DNA from: Okeania sp. KiyG1
GTDB taxonomy: Bacteria; Cyanobacteriota; Cyanobacteriia; Cyanobacteriales; Microcoleaceae
Assembly (NCBI RefSeq): GCF_014132355.1
Contig: NZ_BLZO01000158.1
Coordinates: 1 to 35,636 of the forward strand
Length of the DNA stretch: 35,636 bases
Reading direction: 5' to 3'
Under the pieces are notes generated by a model that saw nothing but the letters and a program-made list of their open reading frames with translations, did no database searches and had not been told where the DNA came from. Below, in pieces: positions 650-17,307 of the stretch (positions within the stretch are counted from its first letter, which is position 1; every line of letters begins with the position of its first letter). A program made the translations under genes and the position numbers.

Positions 650-2419
650 CTACTGACATAAGTTAAGACTTATTCCATCAAGATTAGCACCATAACCATT
701 AGCTGTCTCATTCAGATTATCAAAGCTGAGAACAGTTTCAGTGCTTTTCGCTTGCAAGTTGTAGGTTTTCACCTCCCATTCAGTATCACTGTCAAGCTTA
801 TCCAGTGCTTCCACTAATTCCGAACCCCAATTTACATTCAGTTTGTCATGTTCTGTCGTTGATTTGCCACTGCCTGCAAATCCAAAAGTTAGCTTGTAGA
901 TATCCCCTGGTTGGGTCGCTATTTTCTGAGAAATTTTAGTTGTGGCATTGTCACTATCTAGCTGCACCAATTGTGACCCATCGTAGGCTTGGAAGTATTT
1001 GTAGCCATCGTATACAAACAGATTATCGTTATAAACTATGATACCAGGCCCTTCCACTAATTCCCAATTATCCAATCCTTTCACAGGAGGAACTAATTTG
1101 GGATACGAACCATAAGGAGTTACAAAAACATAATCTTCTTCTTTAGGGGTTTTTGGTGTTTCAAAGCTGCCATTGATTACTAAGTTGTTCGGTGCTGTAT
1201 TCTCACAAGTCTTGATATACTGATCTAGGTTGTTTAACCAAACTTTGTTGGGTTGATTATAATTGGCAACAAAAGCATCAAAGTCACCGTCTCCATCTAC
1301 ATCTCCTAAAGTTACACCTAAGCTAGTGACATTCCCCAAAGATTGCCCAGAGTCAGTGAATTTGCCACTACCATCGTTTAACCACACTTTGTTTGGCTGC
1401 TTATTCCTATTAGCAACAAAAGCATCCAGATCACCGTCTCCATCCACATCTGCTAAACTCGAACCATGGCTATAGAACCTCCCCAAAGATTGCCCAGAGT
1501 CAGTGAATTTGCCACTACCATCGTTGAACCACACTTTGTTTGGCTGATTAGCATCATTAGGAATAAAAGCATCCAGATCGCCATCTCCATCCAGATCTGC
1601 TAAACTCACATCCCAGCTTGCAGAATTCCCCAAAGATTGCCCAGAGTTAGTGAATTTGCCACTACCATCGTTGAACCACACTTTGTTTGGCTGATTATAA
1701 TTAGCAACAAAAGCATCTAAATCACCGTCTCCATCTACATCTGCTAAACTTACACTTAAGCTCTTGGAATTCCCCAAAGATTGCCCAGAGTTAGTGAATT
1801 TGCCACTACCATCGTTTAACCACACTTTGTTTGGCTTACCTTGATTAGCAACAAAAGCATCAAGATCACCGTCTCCATCCACATCTGCTACACTTACATC
1901 TTGGCTACTGGAGTTCCCCAAAGCTTGGCCAGAGTCAGTGAATTTGCCACTACCATCGTTTAACCAAATTTTGTTTGGCTGATTACTCCAATTAGCAACA
2001 AAAGCATCCAGATCGCCATCTCCATCCAAATCTACTAAACTCACTCCTCTGCCCTGGGACCTCCCCAAAGATTGCCCAGAGTCAGTAAATTTGCCACTAC
2101 CATCGTTGAACCACACTTTGTTTGGCTGATTACCCCAATTAGAAACAAAAGCATCCAGATCGCCATCTTCATCCAAATCTGCTAACCTCACACCGAACCT
2201 ACTGGAATTACCCAAAGCTTGGCCAGAGTCAGTGAACTTAATCATCGGAGTAGCATTAACTGTTTGTATCGGTACAACAAACATCCCAATTGCCATTACC
2301 ACTGCCACCACAACCTGAAAGTATTTCGCCAAAGTTTGTTTCAGTTGTGGCCAAGGATTAAATTCATCCTCTATTGTTTCGGCTACATTGTTTTTCTGTA
2401 GCCATCTTGAAAATGCCAT
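650..2419 (-). CDS. Secreted FG-GAP/VCBS propeller with DUF642-like domain (paralogue 1)
   Basis: This 589-aa protein starts at the ATG at 2419 (MAFSRWLQK), which has AGGAG about 10 nt upstream; an in-frame ATG 30 nt earlier has no ribosome site. A roughly 34-residue leader precedes a hydrophobic segment (about 37-55) ending VNA-TP, consistent with a long signal peptide or signal anchor. Seven repeats of about 48 residues follow, each with a calcium-type DxDGDGDxD loop, DAFVAN, PNKVW and NDGSGK. Seven FG-GAP repeats would make one complete beta-propeller. The C-terminal 190 residues (NLVINGSFETP, DGSQLVQLDS, a Q-x-I-x-T segment, LNVNWG) resemble DUF642/carbohydrate-binding jelly rolls. Its role is probably at the cell surface or extracellular; the ligand is unknown. 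The blades are nearly identical at DNA level. An IS element lies only about 46 bp upstream of the start. Confidence 0.85.
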   Translation of the reverse strand: MAFSRWLQKNNVAETIEDEFNPWPQLKQTLAKYFQVVVAVVMAIGMFVVPIQTVNATPMIKFTDSGQALGNSSRFGVRLADLDEDGDLDAFVSNWGNQPNKVWFNDGSGKFTDSGQSLGRSQGRGVSLVDLDGDGDLDAFVANWSNQPNKIWLNDGSGKFTDSGQALGNSSSQDVSVADVDGDGDLDAFVANQGKPNKVWLNDGSGKFTNSGQSLGNSKSLSVSLADVDGDGDLDAFVANYNQPNKVWFNDGSGKFTNSGQSLGNSASWDVSLADLDGDGDLDAFIPNDANQPNKVWFNDGSGKFTDSGQSLGRFYSHGSSLADVDGDGDLDAFVANRNKQPNKVWLNDGSGKFTDSGQSLGNVTSLGVTLGDVDGDGDFDAFVANYNQPNKVWLNNLDQYIKTCENTAPNNLVINGSFETPKTPKEEDYVFVTPYGSYPKLVPPVKGLDNWELVEGPGIIVYNDNLFVYDGYKYFQAYDGSQLVQLDSDNATTKISQKIATQPGDIYKLTFGFAGSGKSTTEHDKLNVNWGSELVEALDKLDSDTEWEVKTYNLQAKSTETVLSFDNLNETANGYGANLDGISLNLCQ

Positions 2420-2465
2420 GATCGAAATTAGTCTCCTTTGATATTGCAAGTTGAATAATTATACT

Positions 2466-2519: not shown

Positions 2520-3934
2520 AAAAACTGACCGCAGTTTTAACAGAAGTGATGCCCTCCTCCTGTGTTGATAACAATCCAACCCACCCCCATCCCCTCCCGG
2601 GAGGGGAGCAAGAGGGGTGGGTGAGTTATAGTCCCTATCTAGTTCCTGTCCACATCCAGGACAAGAATGCCAGCGCTCTGATAAGCTTTTAGGGACTTTG
2701 CTCAAACATTGCCAACAATGCTGAGATGTACCCTTTGGGTCTACTTTAATAACTCGCTTACCCAGTTTCCAAGCTACATATTCTAATACTTGAACAAACT
2801 GTCCAAACGCTGCATCTTGCAAAGACTTATTCAATCCTGACTTCGCAGATTGGCCGTTAGGTAAAAACTGACCATTACCTCCTAACTTGGCTTTACAACG
2901 TCGAACTAAATTAGCTATTTGCAGGTCTTCTAAAAATATCACCTGACAATCACGCTCACAAATGATAAGCTAATTTGAATTGCCAGTCTAATCTTTGCCT
3001 GGCTATCAGTTGGTGCAGTTTCGCTATCTTACGTTTGAGAATTTTCCAAGGTAGGATGTGCTTTGGCTTCTTAGCTAGTCTTGCTTGAAGCTTAGACAAT
3101 CTATGTTCCGAGAGTCTGAAAAACTTAGGAACTTCTATGAACTCCCCATCGGACGTAACCGCATAGTAGAACAATCCCAAATCAATACCCTTTGAGTTTT
3201 GTTCGGTGGGTTGAATTTCTACACGCCTCAAAGGTACAGTCTTATCTTCGATGGTGAAACTGATATATAAACCATCTGCTTCACGGATTACTGTACCCGT
3301 CTTAACCTTGAAACCTTCTGGTATTGGGCGATTGTACACAAAAGGGACTAAACCAATTTTTGGCAAATTAACAAGGGCAACGACCGTTAGCATTTTTGAC
3401 AATATTAGCATTTGATAACTGAGGATAGCTGAACGAGTTGTAATAGTGCTTTCCCTTATATTTTGGTCTACCACTGGTTTTGCCGTTCTTGTCAGGTTGG
3501 GTAAAGTTATCCATTGTTGTTTGCACACGCTGGACAATATCTTGCAAAACCTGGGAGTGCATAGACTTATACTCAGGAAATAGTTTTTTAGTCTGTGCTA
3601 AGTCTGCCAGTTGAACAGTTTCCCACACAACATAACCATTGACTATATTTGGGTGCTTATCTCCTTTCTTTGTTATCGGGTTACCATTGCTGTCTTTTTT
3701 TCTACCGTCGCGCGTTTGTACTCTAAATTCTGGAATATTTTGGTAAATCCGTTCTATAGGTACTACTGAAACATTAAGTGGACAAGCATTAACTGGTGTG
3801 CGCGTGGCTTCAAACCAGTTCAGTCTTTCAGCTAAACGGTAATTGTATTGCCTCCTAGCCATGGATAACCAATTAGCAATAATAACCGCTTGACTTTTAC
3901 AGGGTTTTAGCTTGTACTTGTATTTCAATAGCAT
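2520..3934 (-). pseudogene. tnpB: TnpB RuvC-family RNA-guided nuclease, broken
   Basis: Three frames together make one TnpB. Frame 1 (3934-3379) has the N-terminal MLLKYKYKLKPCKSQ, a helical part and RPKYKGK. Frame 2 (to about 2956) has RuvC-I GIDLGL. Frame 3 has RuvC-II FLEDL, a zinc ribbon CWQC/CPGC and RuvC-III LDRDYNS. The first break is one extra C in a C-run near 3379; the second is a 2-nt loss in a TG run near 2965. Immediately after DRDYNS a GC-rich palindrome (2578-2622) is inserted, after which the normal C-terminus is lost from the frame. The catalytic D, E, D and the four Cys remain recognisable, so decay is recent. It is divergent from tnpA, with an 80-bp promoter gap between them. 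Confidence 0.8.
2578..2622. repeat. GC-rich palindrome inserted in tnpB
   Basis: CCCACCC and GGGTGGG arms enclose CCCCTCCCGGGAGGGG, a perfect 16-bp palindrome. A related sequence (CCCACCCCTAACCCCTCCC) recurs at about 30210-30240. It sits exactly after the DRDYNS codons of tnpB. Confidence 0.65.
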
Positions 3935-4014: not shown

Positions 4015-4429
4015 ATGAAAAAGATTTTGTATAAGCGTGGTAGAGCCGTATCGGACATGAAAGCTCACTTAGTCTTGGTGACGAAATATAGAAAAAAAGT
4101 AATCAATCAGGAGATGCTCAAACGATTAGGAGAAATAGTAGACAACCTATGCACGATCGGGGGACTGCAAACTCATAGAATTCAATGGTGAACCCGACCA
4201 TGTACATTTGTTATTTCAATACTACCCACAGTTAGAGCAACCATTGTTTGTAACTAATCTGAAATCTGTAACCAGCAGAATACTGAGAACTCTGTTCTCA
4301 GAACAAGTCAACCAGGTATATTTCAAAGCTGTCTTTTGGAGTGAGTCTTACTTTATTGCTAGCTGTGGTGGTGTCAGTGTTTCAGTGCTAAAGAAATATA
4401 TAGAAAATCAGGACGAACCACATACATAA
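4015..4429 (+). pseudogene. tnpA: IS200-like Y1 transposase TnpA, frameshifted
   Basis: The reading frame opens at the ATG at 4015 (MKKILYKRGRAVSDMKAHLV) and is read to about 4150. After a +1/-1 shift near the run of five G at 4158, the same protein continues as DCKLIEFNGEPDHVHLLFQYYP to the stop at 4427. HVHLL is the HUH metal motif. The C-terminal CGGVSVSVLKKYIENQ carries the likely catalytic Tyr. Its combined length of about 137 aa is normal for IS200 TnpA, which cuts and rejoins single-stranded IS ends. As read, the frame stops after HRIQW. Confidence 0.8.
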
Positions 4430-5093: not shown

Positions 5094-6800
5094 CTACTGA
5101 CACAATTTAACGCTTACTCCATCCAGACGAGTACCACTACTATCAGCTATATCATCGAGATTATCAAAGCTGAGAACAGTTTCAGTACTTGTAGCTTCCA
5201 GGTTATAGGTTTTCACCTCCCATGTCTCACTGTCTACTTGATCAAATGCTTCAACTAATTCCGAACCCCAATATACATTTATTGTGTTATTTTCGGTTGC
5301 TTCGGAATCATCATTACCTTTAAATGCAAAAGTTAGCTTGTAGGTTTCTCCTTGTTGGGTAGAAATTGTCTGAGCAATTTTAGTCGTTGCATTTATACTA
5401 TCCATATCCACAAATTGTGACCCATCGTAGGGACTGTCGATCAATCTGTTATCAAGTTCGATAAATGGCCCGGAAACTAGCTCCCAACCTTCGATCGCTC
5501 TTTCATAACTAGCACCATCAAGTGTTGGAATTTCTGGTGTTTCAAAGCTGCCATTGACGACTAAGTTGTTTGGTGCTACGTTGTCACAAAGGTTGACATA
5601 CTCATCTAGGTTGTTTAACCAAACTTTGTTGGGCTGATTTCGATTAGTAACAAAAGCATCCAGATCGCTATCTCCATCGACATCCGCTAAACTTACATCT
5701 CTGCTATTGGAATCCCCCAAAGCTTGCTGTGAGTCAGTGAAATTGCCACTACCATCATTTAACCAAACTTTGTTAGGTTCACTTAAATTAGCAACAAAAG
5801 CATCAATATCACCATCTCCATCCACATCTCCTAAACTTATACCTCTGCTATTGGAATCCCCCAAATTTTGCCCAGAGTCAGTGAAATTGCCACTACCATC
5901 ATTTAACCAAACTTTGTTTGGCTGATCAGAATTATTAGCAACAAAAGCATCAACATCACTATCTCCGTCCACATCCGCTAAACTCACACTTCTGCTCTTG
6001 GAATTCCCCAAATTTTGCCCAGAGTCAGTGAAATTGCCACTACCATCATTTAACCAAACTTTGTTTGGCTGCTCAAAATTAGCAACAAAAGCATCAACAT
6101 CACTATCTCCATCCACATCTGCTAATTCCACATCATAGCTAGTGGTATTCCCCAAATTTTGCTGTGAGTCAATGAAATTGCCACTACTATCATTTAACCA
6201 AACTTTGTTTGGCTGCTCAGAATTAGCAACAAAAGCATCAACATCACTATCTCCATCCACATCTGCTAATTCCACATCATAGCTAGTTACATTCCCCAAA
6301 GCTTGCTGTGAGTCAATGAAATTGCCGCTACCATCATTTAACCAAACTTTGTTGGCCTGACTACCAGAATTAGCAACGAAAGCATCTAGATCGCCATCTC
6401 CATCCACATCTGCTAAACTCACATCTAAGCTATTGTAATTCCCCAAATTTTGCTCAGAGTCAGTGAAGTTGCCGTTACCATCATTTAACCAAACTTTGTT
6501 GGCCTGATCGCTAGTATTAGCAACAAAAGCATCTAGATCGCCATCTCCATCCACATCTGCTAAACTCACACTTATGCTATCGGAATTCCCCAAAGCTTGC
6601 CCAGAGTCAATAAACTCAATAGTCGGAGCAGCGTGGACTGTTGTTATTGGCATGACAAACATCGCAACTGCCATTACCACTGCCAGCACAACCTGAAAGC
6701 ACTTACCCAAAGTTTGTTTCAGTTGTGGGGAAGAATTAAATTCATTCGCTATCGTAGTTTCGGCCACATTTGTTTTCTGTAGCCATCTTGAAAATGTCAT
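5094..6800 (-). CDS. Secreted FG-GAP/VCBS propeller with DUF642-like domain (paralogue 2)
   Basis: This 568-aa protein starts at the ATG at 6800 (MTFSRWLQKTN), with AGGAG at the same spacing as in paralogue 1; an upstream ATG at 6851 lacks a site. The N-terminal leader and hydrophobic segment match paralogue 1 (FQVVLAVVMAVAMFVMPI, then VHA-AP). Seven blades follow, with DVDGDGDLDAFVAN, DVDGDSDVDAFVAN and NKVWLNDGSGN motifs. Several blades have S in place of G in the calcium loop. The C-terminal domain (NLVVNGSFETP, DGSQFVDMDS, INVYWGSELVEAFD, NLDD) matches DUF642-type folds. Blades 3 and 4 are almost identical at DNA level. The two genes are clearly a tandem duplication now separated by the IS, a stub and a MITE. 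The ligand is unknown. Confidence 0.85.
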   Translation of the reverse strand: MTFSRWLQKTNVAETTIANEFNSSPQLKQTLGKCFQVVLAVVMAVAMFVMPITTVHAAPTIEFIDSGQALGNSDSISVSLADVDGDGDLDAFVANTSDQANKVWLNDGNGNFTDSEQNLGNYNSLDVSLADVDGDGDLDAFVANSGSQANKVWLNDGSGNFIDSQQALGNVTSYDVELADVDGDSDVDAFVANSEQPNKVWLNDSSGNFIDSQQNLGNTTSYDVELADVDGDSDVDAFVANFEQPNKVWLNDGSGNFTDSGQNLGNSKSRSVSLADVDGDSDVDAFVANNSDQPNKVWLNDGSGNFTDSGQNLGDSNSRGISLGDVDGDGDIDAFVANLSEPNKVWLNDGSGNFTDSQQALGDSNSRDVSLADVDGDSDLDAFVTNRNQPNKVWLNNLDEYVNLCDNVAPNNLVVNGSFETPEIPTLDGASYERAIEGWELVSGPFIELDNRLIDSPYDGSQFVDMDSINATTKIAQTISTQQGETYKLTFAFKGNDDSEATENNTINVYWGSELVEAFDQVDSETWEVKTYNLEATSTETVLSFDNLDDIADSSGTRLDGVSVKLCQ

Positions 6801-6863
6801 AATCAAAATTAGTCTCCTTTGGTATTTTTGTGATCTACTGAAGAACATCACAATATGAAAAAT

Positions 6864-7240
6864 TAATGTTTACTTCCTGCTACGGTAACACTCCGCAACT
6901 GGACTTCCATAGATATTGAAGGGTCTTGCTGTTCTTAGACACCTACAATAATCTATATAGATCTATGATTATCTGTTCTATTCCTGCTTCATCCTGGCAA
7001 CGTCGGCGTTATCCAGTCCACAAGTTGTCACGATCTAACTGACCGCCTGAGCTAGATTTAAACTAGCATTTCCTAGGTCATGCTGCGCAAACAAATCTTG
7101 AACGCAGCTCAAATTTCAGTGTTCGCACTTAAACACTCTTACTATCCCTATGGCATTTCTGGCTCTTGCAGCCAGTTTAAATTACGGTCAAATAGATGCA
7201 CTGCCATCACCATTATAAACAAAAATTATCTAGTGTCAAA
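6864..7240 (-). pseudogene. IS1341-type TnpB C-terminal remnant
   Basis: On the minus strand a decayed TnpB tail is readable: RNAIGIVRVFKCEH with a stop where a second zinc Cys would be, then NLSCVQDL, a seven-codon insertion (FAQHDLG), NASLNLAQAVS, TTCGLDNADVARMKQE, and further down LRSVTVAGSKH before a stop. Zinc-ribbon Cys, the RuvC-III D and the N-A-x-L-N-L helix are recognisable; stops and shifts intervene. No N-terminal half is seen. Between 6801 and 6863 only the leader of paralogue 2 is present. Confidence 0.5.
7071..7091 (-). repeat. 21-nt short dispersed repeat inside a tnpB remnant
   Basis: The unit has the core GCATGACCTAGGA, preceded by TTTGCGCA. It inserts seven codons (FAQHDLG) in frame between D-L and N-A of the RuvC-III motif. 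The same unit occurs at 14610-14630 (same codon position, another TnpB subfamily) and at 17252-17272 (intergenic). It resembles the arm of the MITE at 11852-12084. Confidence 0.65.
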
Positions 7241-7315
7241 TTTAATCTCTTTTCCCTTCAGTAGTAGCTTGTCTAGACTAATTTTGTTAGTTGGCTAAAA
7301 GACAAAGTTTAATAT

Positions 7316-7440
7316 TCAGGACTTACGCAGAAGCGCTATATGTAGAGCGAACAGCCGTTTGCTTGCGCATACTTCGCAGGTGCGCTTACTAGACTGACAC
7401 AGCTTAAATAGTGTATTAGATGGGGGCGTTGCTGAATACT
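7316..7440. repeat. Half MITE and GCGTTGCTGA end
   Basis: TTCAGGACTTACGCA at 7316 is one terminal repeat of the family seen complete at 19789-19882; its partner is absent. At about 7427 GGCGTTGCTGAATACTGGGA is the terminal sequence of the MITE family at 9748-9923, again solitary. No gene is seen in 7241-8097. Confidence 0.45.
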
Positions 7441-7455
7441 GGGATGATTTCGCCG

Positions 7456-7697
7456 CTACACGGGGACACGGCGACACGGGGACACGGGGACACGGGGACA
7501 CTGGTGACACGGGACACGGTGACACGGGGACACGGGGACACGGTGACACGGGGACACGGATACACGGATACACGGATACACGGATACACGGATACACGGG
7601 GACACGGGGACACGGTGACACGGATACACGGGGACACGGATACACGGAGACAGGGTGACACGGATACACGGGGACACGGATACACGGATACACGGGA
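7456..7697. repeat. Octamer minisatellite
   Basis: About 30 tandem 8-nt units are present. CGGGGACA predominates on the left and CGGATACA on the right, with CGGTGACA variants and an occasional 7-nt unit. Because 8 is not a multiple of 3 and the unit has no stop in any frame, long ORFs appear on both strands. They have no start context and read as repeated dipeptides, so they are artefacts. Confidence 0.9.
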
Positions 7698-8056
7698 ATT
7701 ATGGTTTCTGCAGATTGCTTCACTGAGGAAATGTTTGGTTGGTTGCGATCGCAAGGTTTGAAGTGCAGCACAAACATCTCTTTTAACTTTTTGACTTTTA
7801 ACTTTTAACTTTTAACTTTTAACTTTTGACTTTTGACTTTTGACTTTGCTCCACGGGGAAACGGGGACACGGGAATTATGGTTTCTGCAGATTGTTTCAC
7901 TGAAAAAATGTTTGATTGGTTGCGATCGCAAGGTTTGAAGTGCAGCACAAACATCTTTTTAACTTTTGACTTTTAACTTTTGACTTTTAACTTTTAACTT
8001 TTGACTTTTGACTTTTAACTTTTAACTTTTGACTTTTGACTTTTAAATTTTGACTT
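7691..8056. repeat. 177-bp tandem duplication with heptamer tails
   Basis: The segment from CACGGGAATTATGGTTTC through GCGATCGCAAGG and GTGCAGCACAAACATC is present at 7691 and again at 7868. Each copy is followed by (ACTTTTA/ACTTTTG)n heptamers; the second also carries a three-unit remnant of the octamer array in front. It lies immediately upstream of the thiC leader. Confidence 0.8.
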
Positions 8057-8097
8057 ACTTTCCATGGAACCCAAAAAATGCTATAGTAGAAAATTAA

Positions 8098-9655
<1,558 letters not shown>

Positions 9656-9670
9656 TAGCTATTATATTAA

Positions 9671-9735
9671 CAGGACTTACGCAAATTCACCTTGAAAACG
9701 CGATATGTAGGGGCGAATGGCATTCGCCCTCACTT
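9671..9735. repeat. Half copy of the CAGGACTTACGCAA MITE
   Basis: CAGGACTTACGCAA followed by GTAGGGGCGAATGGCATTCGCC is the left half of the family seen complete at 19789-19882 and 21290-21510. The right terminal repeat is missing; the next MITE starts 13 bp later. Confidence 0.6.
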
Positions 9736-9747
9736 CTGGAGATGTCT

Positions 9748-9923
9748 ATTGATTGAATTAAATGCCGTTGCTGAATTGAAGTATGAATGTGCGATTGTTT
9801 GGTTATGGTCAAGCCCCCGCGCATCCCCCAATTTTGGGGGACTTCTAGAGTTTTATCCCCCCAATTTTGGCTTGCTCGGGGGGCAAAATCATACTCAGAA
9901 TCAGCAACGCTAATTAAATCAAT
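9748..9923. repeat. MITE with about 35-bp terminal inverted repeats
   Basis: The left arm (9748-9785: ATTGATTGAATTAAATGCCG, TTGCTGA, GTATGA) and right arm (9890-9923) are imperfect inverted repeats. Between them is a CCCCC..GGGGG palindrome around CAATTTTGG. A second, left-truncated copy lies at 4896-5087. Its right arm supplies the TGA stop codon of the gene at 9919-10392. Confidence 0.65.
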
Positions 9924-10392
9924 CCAGCTCAAGAAGCATTTTGAGTCTTTCTAAAACTATGGCTTCTTGTTGACTAATTTTAGGTCCTGTACCAAATATT
10001 CCTTCTCCAGAAGCATTAGCTATTTGAGTAGCGATTTCATAGAGAAATTCTTTATATTCTTGAGCTTCTTTCGGAGTAGCTTTAAGATGAGCGATCGCGA
10101 CTGCTGCTTGAATTTTTTCTTGTGCATCTTCCAGAAAGTCTGGAAAATTTACGGCATTTTCTATCTCATTTATTCGAGTTGTTTTTTCTGCAATATCTAC
10201 TAACAAATTTTGAATCAGTTGATTATCCTGATAATTTAACTTAGCGTGCTTAACTTCTTTGTTAAAAGTAAATACTTCTTTTACAGCCGAAAAAAGTGTA
10301 AATTCAGAGGCAATAATTATCATTGAAACTAAAGTAATTGCTTGTAATAATAACTGCCATTCTGAATTTGTATAATCTGCTTTAGTCGTCAT
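9919..10392 (-). CDS. Small single-pass membrane protein, conserved-type hypothetical
   Basis: This 157-aa protein starts at the ATG at 10392, inside the last codons of pyrE (11-nt overlap), so the pair is probably translationally coupled. Residues about 14-38 (LLLQAITLVSMIIIASEFTLF) form one hydrophobic helix. The rest is helical and charged. The C-terminal part (IATQIANASGEGIFGTGPKISQQEAIVLERLKMLL) resembles the helical C-terminus of TerB-like or DUF-type cyanobacterial proteins, but I do not recognise a specific family. The stop codon lies within the right arm of a MITE, so the natural C-terminus may have been altered. Function unknown. Confidence 0.65.
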   Translation of the reverse strand: MTTKADYTNSEWQLLLQAITLVSMIIIASEFTLFSAVKEVFTFNKEVKHAKLNYQDNQLIQNLLVDIAEKTTRINEIENAVNFPDFLEDAQEKIQAAVAIAHLKATPKEAQEYKEFLYEIATQIANASGEGIFGTGPKISQQEAIVLERLKMLLELD

Positions 10393-10993
10393 TTTTCTGA
10401 CTCATATTTTTCAGATTTTCTTGTAGCTCTGATATAGTAAATATTGACTCAAACTGAAGACCTTCTTTTTGATAAAGTTCTCGACCTCCTTGCTCTCTAT
10501 CTACAAGGGCAAAAACCCGCTCCACTTGATAGCTTGCTTCTCGCAGTCGATTAACAGCTAGCATTGCTGAAGCTCCAGTTGTCACAACATCTTCCAAAAC
10601 AACTACTCTAGCATTAGCTTCTAGTGAGGGTCCTTCTATATAAGCCATTGTGCCATGTCCTTTGGCCTCTTTTCGGATTATTAAAGCTGGTATTGGACGA
10701 TTTTCATAAGCTGAGACTACACTAACAGCAGTAACTATTGGATCTGCACCTAAAGTTAAACCTGCTACACCTTGAGTATCTTCAGGTAACATGGACAAGA
10801 ATAACCGTCCAGTTGCCAAAGCACCTTGGGGATGAAGAGTAACGTATTTACCATTGATGTAATAGGAGCTACGTTGTCCAGAAGATAAGATAAAATCCCC
10901 TTCGCGATAAGCTAACCGACACAACAAATTGAGTAATTCTTGTTTGATAGTGGTTAGATCGACAGTAGCTAAGGATAAAATTTGATTTGTCAT
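10382..10993 (-). CDS. pyrE: Orotate phosphoribosyltransferase PyrE
   Basis: PyrE joins orotate to PRPP, giving OMP in pyrimidine synthesis. The 203-aa length is normal. YREGDFILSSGQRSSYYINGK near the N-terminus, LTLGADPIVTAV, RKEAKGHGTMAYIEG (catalytic loop region) and VVVLEDVVTTGASAM (the PRPP-binding signature, about residues 129-143) are all present. The gene overlaps a small membrane-protein gene by 11 nt. Just upstream lie GGGAATA heptamers and no other gene, so its promoter should be between about 10994 and 11250. Confidence 0.95.
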   Translation of the reverse strand: MTNQILSLATVDLTTIKQELLNLLCRLAYREGDFILSSGQRSSYYINGKYVTLHPQGALATGRLFLSMLPEDTQGVAGLTLGADPIVTAVSVVSAYENRPIPALIIRKEAKGHGTMAYIEGPSLEANARVVVLEDVVTTGASAMLAVNRLREASYQVERVFALVDREQGGRELYQKEGLQFESIFTISELQENLKNMSQKNDD

Positions 10994-11452
10994 ACTTTTA
11001 TGGCGCTATGCGCTAGGGAATAGGGAATAGGGAATAGGGAATAGGGAACAGTAGACTGTCAAAGGGTTTTCGGTGCTCAAATGCTCCGCTAACAGAATGA
11101 GGAAATGTCCTAACCTTAAATAGATTATCGTAGGTTTCTAAGAACGGCGCGAACATTTACAAATGCTCAAAGTTAATCAGAGATAACTTCTGACTTCTGA
11201 CTTCTGACTTCTGACTTGCGCGTAGCGCTATATAATCTCACTGCTATAATACGAGCAACAAAGCCTTCATTAATTGATAATTGATAATGGATAATTGATA
11301 ATTACCTCTGGTTAAAACCGCTCTTGATTGAATATAAGGAAATATTATTTCTTTATTTCCCCGATCAAGGGGAGGCTTTAAGGCGCGAATTATTTAATTA
11401 TTAATTATTAATTATTAATTATTCGGTAATAACCTACAATAAATAATAAGGT
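10994..11452. other. Intergenic region with heptamer repeats and repeat R2
   Basis: No gene is seen. 11018-11048 is (GGGAATA)n; 11195-11218 is (CTTCTGA)n; a small GCGCGTAGCGC palindrome is at about 11217. The rest (11270-11430) is repeat R2. The pyrE promoter and the promoter of the gene at 11459 must both lie here. Confidence 0.6.
11270..11430 (+). repeat. Dispersed TTCGGTAA-ended repeat, copy R2
   Basis: It is nearly identical over about 160 bp to R4 at 17308-17476: TAATTGATAATTGATAATGG, TTACCTCTGGTT, GAATATAAGGAAATATTATT, CCGATCAAGGGGAGGCTT, AAGGCGCGAATTATT, (TAATTAT)n, then TTCGGTAAT. It is in the same orientation, 6 kb away. Confidence 0.75.
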
Positions 11453-11458
11453 ATGGCC

Positions 11459-11851
11459 ATGAATTGGAAAAGCCTTAGTGGCATAATGATTTTTTCAGCG
11501 ATCGCGACTCTAACATCTGTCCAAATTGCTGAAGCGGGACATCAAGATCCTGTTCGTACATATCAACCTTTTGCAGAAGAGTTTAACGAAGCAAGTCAAA
11601 GATATTCTGGTAACTTTTTTGATAAAACAGAGTTTTTGAATCAAATAGGCCGTTATTTCGGTATTTTAAGGTTTCCTGATGAAGCTATTTCTGACGACTT
11701 ACGCCTAGTCAATCAGCTTTATATAGAGGAACAAAGGCGACAGTTTTCTAGTACACCAGTTATTAGAACTCCTGATTTAGTTAATCCCTATAATTCATCA
11801 ATAATGACAGCTCCTCCTTCTGATTCAATTCCTACTTTTGGTGGTAATTAG
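11459..11851 (+). CDS. Small secreted protein, unknown
   Basis: This 130-aa protein starts at the ATG at 11459 (MNWKSLSGIMIFSAIATLTS), with AAGG seven nt upstream; the ATG two codons earlier is too close to that site. Residues 1-27 are a clear signal peptide ending AEA-GH. The mature part is polar and acidic (QDPVRTYQPFAEEFNEASQRY, DKTEFLNQIGRYFGILRFPDEAISDDLRLVNQLY) with a Pro/Ser-rich tail. No motif or Cys is seen and no family is recognised. A MITE starts directly after its TAG. Confidence 0.7.
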   Translation: MNWKSLSGIMIFSAIATLTSVQIAEAGHQDPVRTYQPFAEEFNEASQRYSGNFFDKTEFLNQIGRYFGILRFPDEAISDDLRLVNQLYIEEQRRQFSSTPVIRTPDLVNPYNSSIMTAPPSDSIPTFGGN

Positions 11852-12084
11852 GTAAGCATTTCCTGCGGACTGCTGCGCAAACAGCCGTCAGCTATTAGCT
11901 AGCCTCCTCCGGAGGAACTGCGTTAACAGCTATTAATTTTGAGGAAGATAAAAGCAACCTTTGAAATTGAGTTTGAATAAAATTTACTGGCAAAGTCCTC
12001 TTCCTAAACCTTAGAAGTAATTACTCATTACTGATAGCTGAGTGCTAATAGCTGGTTGCGCAGCATTCCGCAGGAAATGCTTAC
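11852..12084. repeat. 233-bp MITE with about 33-bp terminal inverted repeats
   Basis: The left arm GTAAGCATTTCCTGCGGACT then GCTGCGCAAACAGC and the right arm, read in reverse complement, differ at two positions over 33 bp. The inside contains CCTCCTCCGGAGGA and several TAGCTATTA-like boxes. A miniature relative (GTAAGCATTC..GAATGCTTAC) lies at 17061-17107, and single arms at 17252 and 23397. It begins at the base after the upstream stop codon. Confidence 0.75.
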
Positions 12085-12135
12085 ATCCTATCCACTTTGA
12101 AGCAGAAGTAATTATTAATTATTAATTATTAATTA

Positions 12136-14313
12136 TTAATTATTAATTGTTGAATAACCCCTAGGCGTAATCATCCAATTATTGTAAATACCTGTAGATT
12201 CATTACCAATCAAAATTACGGTCAACATATCAATAGAAAACTCCAATAATTTATCCAAACTTGTCAAGGTAATTTCCTCATTTTCTCGATAAACAGACCG
12301 GACAATTGCTACTGGAGTTTCCGGTTTACGATACTCTAAAAAGATATTCACAGCTTTAACTAATTGTTCTGTTCTTTTCTGGGATTTAGGATTATAAAGT
12401 GCCACAACAAAATCTGCCATTGCTACAGCATTTAAACGTTTTTCTATTACCTCCCAAGGTGTTAATAAATCGCTCAAACTAATAGCACAAAAATCGTGCA
12501 TCAAAGGCGCACCAACTCTAGCAGCAGCAGATTGTAAAGCACTAACTCCAGGAAATACTTCTACCATGGGAATTTTGCCATCCCAACCTGTGGCTCGAAG
12601 TTGTTCTAAAACTAATCCTGCCATACCATAAATTCCACAATCTCCAGAAGAAACTACTGCGACATTTAAGCCAAAATTTGCCAATTCAATTGCTCTTTCT
12701 GCTCGTTCTTTTTCTTGAGTAATAGGTAGTTTTTCGATGATTTGTCCAGGATTTAATAAGGGTTTAATTAAGTCAATATAAAGAGAATAACCAATGACAA
12801 CATCAGCATAACTAACAGCCATTTGAGCTGCGGGTGTCATCTGTTCTAATTTTCCTGGACCAGTGCCAATTAACAATAGTTTTCCAGTTCTTCCTGTATA
12901 TTCTTTTTGAGATATAGCTACAGCAATAGTTGCTGCTCCTGGTTCGCCTTCTAGACGAAATATTTGTTTGCGGACTAATAAATTACTTTCATTAATTCCC
13001 TGAAAAGTTGAGGATAAATTGTCGGTATTTTCTTTTGATTCTGAATTAAGATGATCTTTTTCTTTTGAGTTTAATATCTCGCCGTCTACACGGTGTTTAT
13101 AATTGGTTGGGGTTTGATTCCTCATCCACTTTTTACTTCTTACTTCTTCCTCTCTTGGTGCGCATTCCCTTGCGTCTGTCGCCGACGCGGGGTCGCACCG
13201 CTTCTTACTTCTTCCTTCTTCCTTCTTACTTTTGACTTTTGACTTTTGACTTTTGACTTCTCTTGTGACTTTTGACTTTTGACTTTTGACTTCTCTTGCC
13301 CCTAAAATTGCAGCAGCTTCAGCCACACTAGGAGTTCCTACTTCCTGAGCAACAATATTAGAAGGAGTCGGCACTTCAACACAGCTTAATAACTCTGAAG
13401 AAAAAGTCTGCAAAGGTAAATTTTGTTCCTGACAAAATTCTACTAACCCTATTTCATCAACTTTAATATTGATAGTGGCAATTCCAGCGATCGCTCCTTC
13501 AGCTAAATGATGAACTTGAAATACTTGTTGAACAGCAGTTGCAATTAATTTTTTAGAAGTACCTCTTTCACAACCAACCCCTATCCACAAAACTCGTGGA
13601 TGCCATTGCACTTTCGGTAAATCTGAATCTGGAGCAAACTGGCGTTGAGTAAAACTAATCCAAATTCTGGCCTTGGGAGTAGGAGCAGAGCGATCGCCTA
13701 TTTCTGGAAATCCAAATTCAAATGGATGATTCTGGGGTAGATGCTTTTGCCACAAGGTCGAACCCACTTCCTGAATTACTTGTACGGTTTCTCCTCTAGC
13801 AACTATTCCACTGACTTTATTCCAGTCACCTTCCCCGCGTCGCCAACCAAAAGGTTTACCCAAAATATCAATACCAGGTAATCCTAAATTATGGGATGCG
13901 CCTGTAATAATTGGGATGGCGTTCAGGAGGCGGGCGAGTACATTAGTTAGTTTATCGGCACCACCTTGATGTCCACCACATAAACTAATGACAAATTTAC
14001 CTACTTCATCTATAACAACTACTGCTGGATCGTGATATTTATCTTTTAACAGTGGAGAGATTAAACGTACAACTGCACCACTGGCGAGACAGAAAACTAT
14101 AGCACTATAGTTTTGCCAAATATTTGCTAGATGATTTTTCAGGGAGTCGGTGTAAATTTCGGCGTTAACTGTAGAATTTGTTGTGTGTTGACAAGACTCT
14201 GGTATCCACAGAGTTGCTCCCATTGTCTGGCAAATAGGTTGTAATAATTTTGTTGCTGTGGGAGTTGTGGCGATCGCTGCTATGGGTTGAAATTCTTGGC
14301 CAATTAAATTCAT
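12136..14313 (-). CDS. cobJ: Cobalamin biosynthesis fusion CbiG-CobJ (CbiH)
   Basis: This 725-aa bifunctional protein acts in corrin-ring synthesis. Residues about 1-335 are CbiG, the cobalt-precorrin-5A hydrolase (CLASGAVVRLISPLL, CGGHQGGADKLT, then WIGVGCERGTS and EAAAILGA). Residues about 470-720 are CobJ/CbiH, the precorrin-3B C17-methyltransferase, with SAM-site LLLIGTGPG, VVIGYSLYIDLI, VVSSGDCGIYGMAG, EVFPGVSALQSAAARVGAPL and VALYNPKS. The fusion is common in cyanobacteria. The linker (about 338-395) is encoded by heptamer repeats and a GC-rich palindrome ([29 protein letters not shown]) and is not expected in relatives. The ribosome site before MNLIGQEF is weak. No neighbouring cob gene is present. 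Confidence 0.93.
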   Translation of the reverse strand: MNLIGQEFQPIAAIATTPTATKLLQPICQTMGATLWIPESCQHTTNSTVNAEIYTDSLKNHLANIWQNYSAIVFCLASGAVVRLISPLLKDKYHDPAVVVIDEVGKFVISLCGGHQGGADKLTNVLARLLNAIPIITGASHNLGLPGIDILGKPFGWRRGEGDWNKVSGIVARGETVQVIQEVGSTLWQKHLPQNHPFEFGFPEIGDRSAPTPKARIWISFTQRQFAPDSDLPKVQWHPRVLWIGVGCERGTSKKLIATAVQQVFQVHHLAEGAIAGIATINIKVDEIGLVEFCQEQNLPLQTFSSELLSCVEVPTPSNIVAQEVGTPSVAEAAAILGAREVKSQKSKVTREVKSQKSKVKSKKEEGRSKKRCDPASATDARECAPREEEVRSKKWMRNQTPTNYKHRVDGEILNSKEKDHLNSESKENTDNLSSTFQGINESNLLVRKQIFRLEGEPGAATIAVAISQKEYTGRTGKLLLIGTGPGKLEQMTPAAQMAVSYADVVIGYSLYIDLIKPLLNPGQIIEKLPITQEKERAERAIELANFGLNVAVVSSGDCGIYGMAGLVLEQLRATGWDGKIPMVEVFPGVSALQSAAARVGAPLMHDFCAISLSDLLTPWEVIEKRLNAVAMADFVVALYNPKSQKRTEQLVKAVNIFLEYRKPETPVAIVRSVYRENEEITLTSLDKLLEFSIDMLTVILIGNESTGIYNNWMITPRGYSTINN
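13130..13305. repeat. Heptamer array and palindrome within the CbiG-CobJ linker
   Basis: (ACTTTTG)n and (CTTACTT)n heptamers flank a GC-rich unit (TGCGCATTCCCTTGCGTC, GTCGCCGACGCGGGGTCGCA). Similar heptamers occur between genes throughout the window. All pieces are open in the coding frame and keep the fusion in frame. Confidence 0.8.
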
Positions 14314-14550
14314 TTTTTAGGTATTTGAAATAGAAGCCATTTGTTATCTTGGCAAAGGTAGGGGTTTTTGGCAAAGGAATAATTTCAGCGATTTGTTGTC
14401 CAATTTTTGTCAAATTTTGTTGGCCAGTTAAAAAATCTAAAATTTTTATCACAAAAACATAGAAAAGAGTGTTGGGTTAACAATTTATAACAGTTGCCAT
14501 TACTGTATTTGACATATCAAGATCTTAAAACATTAGACAACTTAAAATTT

Positions 14551-14770
14551 AGCTAGACTTACGAACCCATTCTTGCCCGCACTGCGGCATAGTAATAGAC
14601 TGGGACTTGTTTGCCTAGCATGACCTAGGAAATGGGGCGATAAATATCAAAAATAGGGCGGTAGGACATTCCGTCCTTAAAGCACGCGCTTGCCCGACGG
14701 GATACCGGGGTTACGAAACGAGAAGCCCACACTATAGCGTCAGCGAGCGTGTGGGAGATGTCACACAAAG
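14551..14770 (+). pseudogene. TnpB C-terminal remnant with right end
   Basis: The plus strand reads LDLRTHSCPHCGIVIDWDL, then seven inserted codons (FA-stop-HDLG), then NGAINIKNRAVGHSVLKARA and a degenerate tail. CPHC is half of the zinc ribbon, the D before WDL is the RuvC-III position, and NxAINIKNRAVGH-VLKA is characteristic of this TnpB subfamily. A hairpin CCCACAC/GTGTGGG (14726-14755) followed by AGATGTCAC resembles the right end and guide-RNA tail. Nothing of the N-terminal two-thirds remains. The window 14314-14550 shows no supported gene. Confidence 0.7.
14610..14630 (+). repeat. 21-nt short dispersed repeat inside the tnpB remnant
   Basis: TTTGCCTA followed by GCATGACCTAGGA sits between codons DL and NG of the RuvC-III segment. 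Removing these 21 nt restores a continuous DWDLNGAINIKN frame. It is the same element and the same codon position as at 7071-7091. Confidence 0.7.
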
Positions 14771-17050: not shown

Positions 17051-17307
17051 CGATCGTAAGCATTCCGCAGGAAGAGCTGACCGCTAGTAGCTGAATGCTT
17101 ACGGGGGGTTTAATGAATATAGACTGTTTCAGCCAGCTTTTATAGTAAGTATAAATTCTGACTCAATTAGTAAAGCTTTTATCTAAAATTAAAAGCAATA
17201 GCTGATTGCTGAAGTCCGCAGTTCCGACCACAGGAGACTAGCTGACGGCTGTTTGCGCAGCATGACCTAAGAAATGCTTAAATCCTATCTGTTTTAAAGG
17301 AGAGTTC

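What the first reader, a model, noticed from the sequence alone, without database searches (positions are those of the whole stretch)
7066..14630. Small repeats hit the same codons of three different tnpB copies
Seen: in the tnpB remnants at 6864-7240 and 14551-14770, which belong to different TnpB subfamilies, the same 21-nt repeat (core GCATGACCTAGGA) lies between codons DL and N of the RuvC-III DRDLN motif and adds seven codons in frame. In the fuller tnpB at 2520-3934 a different palindrome (2578-2622) is inserted right after DRDYNS, within about three codons. Known: short dispersed repeats of 21-27 nt have been described in cyanobacterial genomes. Inference: either the conserved codons are an insertion target, or the repeats shape or silence the 5' part of the guide-RNA region overlapping the tnpB 3' end.
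Basis: partly seen in the sequence, partly recalled or inferred. Interest (0 to 1): 0.72.

Follow-up and report, generated by a model that had tools for sequence, protein, structure and literature searches.

The report
Tiny mobile repeat hitting tnpB codons
A 21-letter mobile DNA repeat, present in hundreds of copies in this cyanobacterium, has landed again and again between the same two codons beside the catalytic site of many copies of the tnpB nuclease gene, because those codons often spell the repeat's preferred landing sequence.

Summary
A 21-nt repeat lies exactly between codons D-L and N of RuvC-III in two tnpB remnants (7071-7091 minus, 14610-14630 plus); it is one of several hundred dispersed copies in this Okeania-like genome. 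The same junction is filled in at least 20 tnpB copies here, and RuvC-II E-D-L|N in 3; 47 more fillings lie in named Okeania records. A single interrupted ancestor is rejected in one well-sampled subfamily (AU p 0.00025; the window's own copies were not in that test). The repeat adds exactly 21 nt, without target duplication, at Y-G|A-A-N-S; GAY-TTG|AAY-G, one spelling of D-L-N, fits. The junction is filled some 8 to 14 times more often than other matching tnpB sites, but is not exclusive: of 200 copies not chosen for tnpB, 16 lie in tnpB, 2 at D-x|N and 14 elsewhere in antisense. A guide-RNA role is not supported. The third case is a different palindrome family. Best reading: a new family of cyanobacterial very small dispersed repeats, caught in a large pool of often decayed tnpB genes; how it moves is not shown.

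The parts
7071..7091 (-). 21-nt repeat (type B, TTTGCGCAGCATGACCTAGGA) between codons DL and N of a tnpB remnant
   Evidence: exact match
   Evidence: tblastn of TnpB references over joined flanks, E 9e-5, covering about 120 bases around the junction; translation
14610..14630 (+). 21-nt repeat (type B, TTTGCCTAGCATGACCTAGGA) between codons DL and N of a second tnpB remnant; reads TAG in the tnpB frame
   Evidence: exact match
   Evidence: tblastn E 1.3e-28, 84% identity, covering about 165 bases around the junction
2578..2622 (-). about 45-nt palindrome of another repeat family, directly after DRDYN of tnpB
   Evidence: pattern matched at 2580-2608, one of 118 places at <=3 mismatches in the genome; position
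2520..3934 (-). fuller tnpB carrying the palindrome, in three open pieces
   Evidence: Pfam PF12323, PF01385 and PF07282 each on one piece
11861..11881 (-). further copy of the repeat (type A, 1 mismatch), context CTG|AATGCTTA
12055..12075 (+). further copy (type A, 1 mismatch), context CTG|AATGCTTA
17252..17272 (+). further copy (type B, 1 mismatch), context CTG|AATGCTTA

Best explanation
The 21-nt unit is a very small dispersed repeat of Okeania-group cyanobacteria that is, or was, mobile. It inserts as a clean 21-nt addition, with no target duplication, at Y-G|A-A-N-S (shown). The D-L-N strings of TnpB RuvC-II and RuvC-III, when spelled GAY-YTG-AAY-G, match that site (shown). The genome holds hundreds of tnpB-like stretches, many decayed, so this junction has been hit repeatedly (independence shown for one subfamily by tree and AU test, with gene conversion not excluded). 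The 21-nt length keeps the reading frame, so some interrupted tnpBs are still long open frames with a 7-residue insert one residue after the presumed catalytic Asp; most probably that damages the nuclease (inferred). How the repeat moves is not shown; the least bad guess is an enzyme supplied in trans acting on a folded single strand (one type A form is predicted to fold as two tandem C-GNA-G mini-hairpins).
For: Copy number: 398 exact type A copies with the 3' AAA in this genome, 686 at <=2 mismatches, control 0; type B: 100 exact places used from a cut-off list, 406 at <=3 mismatches, which also admits some type A, control 1. Target from 258 contexts in 37 flank families (loci partly chosen for tnpB): -1 G 97%, -2 Y 97%, +1 A 97%, +2 A 95%, +4 G/C 81% against 34% background. 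Clean 21-nt difference from empty tnpB copies alike at up to 249 of 261 positions. Fillings: 15 of 16 exact GAYNTG|rep|AAY places in this genome read as tnpB (14 RuvC-III, 1 RuvC-II), plus nested fillings (6 RuvC-III, 2 RuvC-II); 47 of 47 in named Okeania records (41 RuvC-III, 6 RuvC-II). Over-filling: 6 of 21 D-x|N sites against 9 of 427 other YGAANS sites in the same 60 tnpB loci, Fisher 1.9e-5; 1.6e-4 without the query copy. Independence: 14 changes needed, 6 forced, AU p 0.00025. Self-nesting at CG|AAGC: 65 places in 6 genomes, 18 here.
Against: No motor was found: only 4 of 24 Y1 transposase loci (two of them overlapping) have a copy in the fetched 3 kb. Folding energies do not beat shuffles (z -0.8 to +0.4). 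Type B breaks the second hairpin; double Watson-Crick changes are 15, 3, 1, 1 and 0, 0, 0 at the seven pairs among 387 copies. Gene conversion among tnpB copies could also scatter the filled state. The short motif alone does not explain the over-filling of D-x|N, and Fisher values ignore clonal copies. Thirty of the 60 loci were found with an interrupted TnpB as query. The nested search fixed the nesting position, so other positions were not tested.
Confidence: 0.83

Rival explanations
1. One interrupted tnpB arose once and spread by IS transposition, so the shared position is inheritance.
For: The filled state is clustered over the whole tree (20 changes for EMP against a shuffled mean of 41), and some interrupted copies are near relatives of each other.
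Against: Within the best-sampled subfamily one clade is rejected, AU p 0.00025, 6 changes forced (five long or degenerate rows, the window's 14610 copy among them, were left out, and the 7071 copy is of another subfamily). Filled and empty copies and types A, B and nested mix among near relatives. The junction is filled in several subfamilies and in two RuvC motifs. The tree also held 7 RuvC-II rows, another part of the gene, so its total is only indicative.
Confidence: 0.1
2. The insertions serve a function: they silence or reshape the tnpB guide RNA or domesticate TnpB.
For: The RuvC-III site lies near the tnpB 3' end, where guide RNAs start (recalled). The junction is over-filled.
Against: 14 of 16 tnpB insertions in the 200-copy sample lie 71 to 260 codons upstream and in antisense. 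Stop-giving copies are 16 of 62 at the junction and 28 of 200 in the sample, Fisher p 0.05 towards more stops, so the frame is not being kept. Remnants without a usable gene carry them too.
Confidence: 0.06
3. Repeats are copied into tnpB by homologous exchange (gene conversion) rather than by insertion.
For: The commonest genomic context, CTG|AATGC, shares seven bases around the junction with tnpB TTG|AATGC. Many near-identical tnpB copies exist.
Against: 37 flank families share little beyond the target motif. Nesting inside the repeat needs no tnpB homology.
Confidence: 0.15

Closest known systems
Small dispersed repeats (SDR1-SDR8) of Nostoc punctiforme, Elhai et al. 2008, Genome Res 18:1484 (paper not held; its content is recalled; cited in PMC4390886, PMC2884548, PMC3116915, passages seen)
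   Same: 21-27 nt, many copies, found in heptamer arrays and minitransposon-like contexts, nested in themselves (recalled); a precise target for at least one family (SDR5 in HIP1, passage)
   Different: Target here is YG|AANS, not HIP1. Exact type A is found in 17 of 389 genomes sampled from the order, with 159-398 copies in each of the 6 genomes of this genus. Identity to a named SDR could not be checked.
REP/REPIN elements with RAYT transposases (PMC3116915 passages; PMC3733652 listing only)
   Same: short non-autonomous repeats that may fold as single strands
   Different: no link to Y1/RAYT-like genes seen (4 of 24 loci, none of the six longer frames of 181-226 aa)
Rickettsia palindromic elements (recalled)
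   Same: in-frame insertion of a repeat into protein genes
   Different: those are much longer (recalled); here 7 codons, 14 when nested
Inteins, introns and homing elements in catalytic codons (recalled)
   Same: recurrent insertion at the most conserved codons of an enzyme
   Different: a 21-nt unit cannot encode splicing or its own mobility

Membership tests
Very small dispersed repeats (SDR) of cyanobacteria | 21-27 nt unit dispersed in high copy number | tested here: met
   21 nt; 398 exact type A copies in this genome, reversed-pattern control 0
Very small dispersed repeats (SDR) of cyanobacteria | precise insertion shown by filled and empty sites | tested here: met
   presence/absence at orthologous sites of two strains was not tested
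Very small dispersed repeats (SDR) of cyanobacteria | nested insertion into own copies (recalled for SDR1, SDR4) | tested here: met
   65 nested pairs in 6 genomes, one deeper stack (L478)
Very small dispersed repeats (SDR) of cyanobacteria | common secondary structure backed by compensatory changes (recalled for SDR4-6) | tested here: inconclusive
   two-hairpin minimum-energy fold for one of five oligos; double Watson-Crick changes 15, 3, 1, 1 and 0, 0, 0 at seven pairs, type B breaks the second stem
Very small dispersed repeats (SDR) of cyanobacteria | sequence match to a named SDR1-SDR8 family | not testable with these tools
   paper not held
SDR5-type (HIP1-targeted) | insertion between bases 3 and 4 of GCGATCGC | tested here: not met
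   target is YG|AANS over 37 flank families
REPIN/RAYT | linked Y1/RAYT gene flanked by copies | tested here: not met
   a copy within about 1.5 kb of 4 of 24 Y1_Tnp matches, none of the six longer frames
TnpB for the host genes | OrfB_IS605 and C-terminal zinc-ribbon domains, similarity to solved TnpB | tested here: met
   filled L036: PF01385 8e-20, PF07282 2.4e-18; empty paralogue L146 to 8bf8 E 3.6e-42

The most novel reading that the evidence does not exclude
The repeat is a minimal homing parasite of an RNA-guided nuclease: 21 nt and often stop-free, it lodges in the two catalytic D-L-N strings of TnpB across subfamilies, blunts the nuclease, and is spread with the tnpB elements; the YG|AANS preference was tuned to these codons.
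Probability: 0.08. Interest if true: 0.78.

Novelty: new member of a known kind. Interest (0 to 1): 0.45.

Why it matters
It gives a very small repeat with a defined target, clean empty and filled site pairs and self-nesting at a site that fits its own target motif, so the old question of how 20-nt repeats move becomes testable. It also shows how codon conservation in an abundant transposon gene can turn into a recurrent DNA insertion target.

Tried and rejected
Single interrupted ancestor: rejected in one subfamily. Guide-RNA role: positions and orientation in 200 copies speak against it; no RNA data were available. Selection to keep the frame open: stop-giving copies not depleted. RAYT/Y1 as motor: no enrichment seen. 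Palindrome as part of the same process: separate family; of the 30 best-matching loci 2 could not be placed and 26 of the other 28 have TnpB similarity in a flank, at several positions. Rfam on the window: only a TPP riboswitch at the gathering thresholds. Literature searches listed nothing that I recognised as an account of this repeat or of insertions in tnpB catalytic codons; what was seen are listings with abstract openings and the passages.

Limits. The 200-copy sample is the first 100 listed places of each of two searches (contig order; the type A search preferred non-G at two flank positions); 12 more of the 200 have TnpB similarity nearby but not across the repeat. The patterns demand D-x-N codons and cannot measure exclusiveness, and several genomes are the same as records. 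Most tnpB assignments are my reading of translations. An earlier count gave 40 and 7; the recount is 41 and 6.
Full report
Observation. The repeat TTTGCNNAGCATGACCTAGGA lies at 7071-7091 (minus) and 14610-14630 (plus), each time between the codons for D-L and N of a tnpB RuvC-III motif. The first remnant is of a ..DLNASLNLAQAVS type, the second of a CPHCG..DLNGAINIKNRAVGHSVLK type; they fall in different parts of the tree, though the first is a long branch. Both are decayed, and the second repeat copy reads TAG in the tnpB frame.

What the repeat is. The window is contig C158 of a 10.98-Mb assembly. In the named genome collection the 45 stretches with the same D-L|repeat|N pattern are all from Okeania (the window's own or very near genome may be left out there). 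Two main forms exist. Type A, TTTGCGNAGCATTCCGNAGGA, has 398 exact copies with the 3' AAA in this genome and 159 to 374 in each of the five other genomes of the genus; 17 of 389 genomes sampled from the order have any. Type B, as in the window, has 406 places at up to 3 mismatches, which also admits some type A copies; the list of exact copies was cut off at about 100. By eye, many copies lie in heptamer-like arrays and in one minitransposon-like context.

Target. Over 258 distinct contexts in 37 flank families (loci partly chosen for tnpB), the base before the repeat is G in 97% of families, the one before it a pyrimidine in 97%, the two after it A in 97% and 95%, and the fourth after it G or C in 81% (background among TGAA sites 34%). 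Compared with empty tnpB copies alike at up to 249 of 261 positions, the insertion is exactly 21 nt with no target duplication. The motif Y-G|A-A-N-S also fits a place inside the repeat itself, GCG|AAGC. Nested pairs at that point occur 65 times in six genomes, 18 in this one (contexts). The search fixed this nesting position, so others were not tested. The inner unit is the CCCGNAGGG form in 63 of 65, so the 42-nt pair may also travel as one unit. One place holds a deeper stack (L478).

The tnpB junction. Exact search for GAYNTG|repeat|AAY in this genome gave 16 places; read by translation, 14 are RuvC-III, 1 is RuvC-II E-D-L|N and 1 is not tnpB. Nested copies add 6 at RuvC-III (C37, C68, C82, C94, C133 of the exact list, and C155 seen) and 2 at RuvC-II (C36, C117). 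In named Okeania records 47 of 47 places read as tnpB: 41 RuvC-III, 6 RuvC-II. These patterns demand D-x-N codons, so they cannot say how exclusive the site is. Of 62 genomes of the family 8 have such places; several are the same as the records. Of 25 places viewed there 24 are tnpB.

Independence. In a tree of 124 site sequences with the repeat left out, filled and empty copies need 20 changes; 7 of those rows are RuvC-II, another part of the gene, so this total is only indicative. In the best-sampled RuvC-III subfamily (24 filled, 25 empty; five long or degenerate rows left out, the window's 14610 copy among them) 14 changes are needed, 6 are forced by well-supported branches, and one clade of filled copies is rejected, AU p 0.00025. 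Near relatives carry types A, B and nested pairs. Gene conversion between copies could produce part of this pattern.

Is the site special? Of 200 copies not chosen for tnpB (the first 100 listed of each type), 16 lie across tnpB: 2 at D-[LV]|N in sense, 14 at other positions 71 to 260 codons upstream, all antisense and several recurring. So tnpB carries the repeat at many sites. Yet the junction is over-filled. In 60 tnpB loci of this genome 6 of 21 D-x|N sites with the motif are filled (3 of them nested), against 9 of 427 other YGAANS sites in the same genes: Fisher 1.9e-5, or 1.6e-4 without the query copy. By pattern in the whole genome 8 DRD-x|N sites with a single repeat are filled and 40 with the same spelling are empty, about 3 of these expected by chance. 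Clonal copies inflate these values, and 30 of the 60 loci were found with an interrupted TnpB as query. Only 15 of 58 empty tnpB sites have TG|AA at the junction. The longer match TTG|AATGC, like the commonest genomic context CTG|AATGC, may be the reason (inference).

Effect on the gene. Type A is stop-free in all or most variants of all six frames (12 or 16 of 16), type B in three of six frames. Twenty open frames of at least 250 residues in the fetched loci carry the repeat in frame; 16 of these also hold the TnpB zinc-ribbon and DxD motif, but many loci were chosen for interrupted tnpB. L036 encodes 417 residues with FAQHDLG one residue after the second Asp of DRD. In the one alignment printed, DRDLNAA of an empty paralogue aligns with DRDENAA of 9yyg, an AI-designed RNA-guided nuclease; the same paralogue matches TnpB 8bf8 at E 3.6e-42. 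That this Asp is catalytic is recalled; inactivation is inferred. Stop-giving copies are 16 of 62 at D-x|N and 28 of 200 in the sample (Fisher p 0.05, towards more stops at the junction), so there is no sign that open frames are kept.

The third case. The palindrome near 2578-2622 belongs to a family with 118 places at up to 3 mismatches. Of the 30 best-matching loci 28 could be placed, and 26 of these have TnpB similarity in a flank, at several positions. The place after DRDYN is shared by five of them (L388, L393, L397, L399, L408), which look like one subfamily, the window's copy (L399) among them. It is a separate tnpB-associated repeat.

A second small repeat of about 22 nt lies just upstream in another subfamily, between the D and R codons in a HIP1-like GCGAT|CGA or GTGAT|CGA; one copy (L124) has it while its D-L|N junction is empty.

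Mechanism and limits. Insertion at a short target is well supported; the motor is unknown. One type A oligo of five is predicted to fold as two mini-hairpins with GNA loops; no energy beats the shuffles, and covariation is modest (15, 3, 1 and 1 double Watson-Crick changes at four of seven pairs). No link to Y1 transposases was seen. The kind, very small dispersed repeats of cyanobacteria, is known (Elhai et al. 2008, recalled; cited in papers whose passages were seen). I recognised no account of this family, its target or its tnpB habit in the listings.

Noticed in passing
L056, L276, L092, L096, L114, L130, L131, L134 just upstream of the 21-nt repeat: A second small repeat (about 22 nt) sits between the D and R codons of DRDL in one tnpB subfamily, in a HIP1-like site; a further copy lies downstream in L056, L123, L130 and L276.
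   Followed up: partly
window 2578-2622; L384-L408: The CCCGGG-centred palindrome family is strongly tnpB-associated: 26 of 28 placed copies have TnpB similarity in a flank; by eye, at one position it seems to replace about 20 bases rather than only insert.
   Followed up: partly
L478 (G000:C97:14748-15589): Stack of several 21-nt repeats nested in one another.
   Followed up: no
L362, L180, L074 (tnpB, antisense repeats): Open tnpB frames of 322 to 424 residues with in-frame peptides SYGMLRK, FLRNATQ, SCGMLRK encoded by antisense copies of the repeat.
   Followed up: partly
window 8091-8186 +: TPP riboswitch at the start of the ORF 8180-9655.
   Followed up: no
window 4048-4411 +: Broken Y1 (IS200-type) tnpA next to the fuller tnpB.
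   Followed up: no
window 7458-7696 and 7780-7847: Tandem arrays of ACACGGGG (about 30 copies) and CTTTTAA (about 10 copies).
   Followed up: no
window 650-2449 - and 5094-6851 -: Two similar-looking proteins of DVDGDGDLDAFVAN-type repeats flank the tnpA/tnpB remnants.
   Followed up: no
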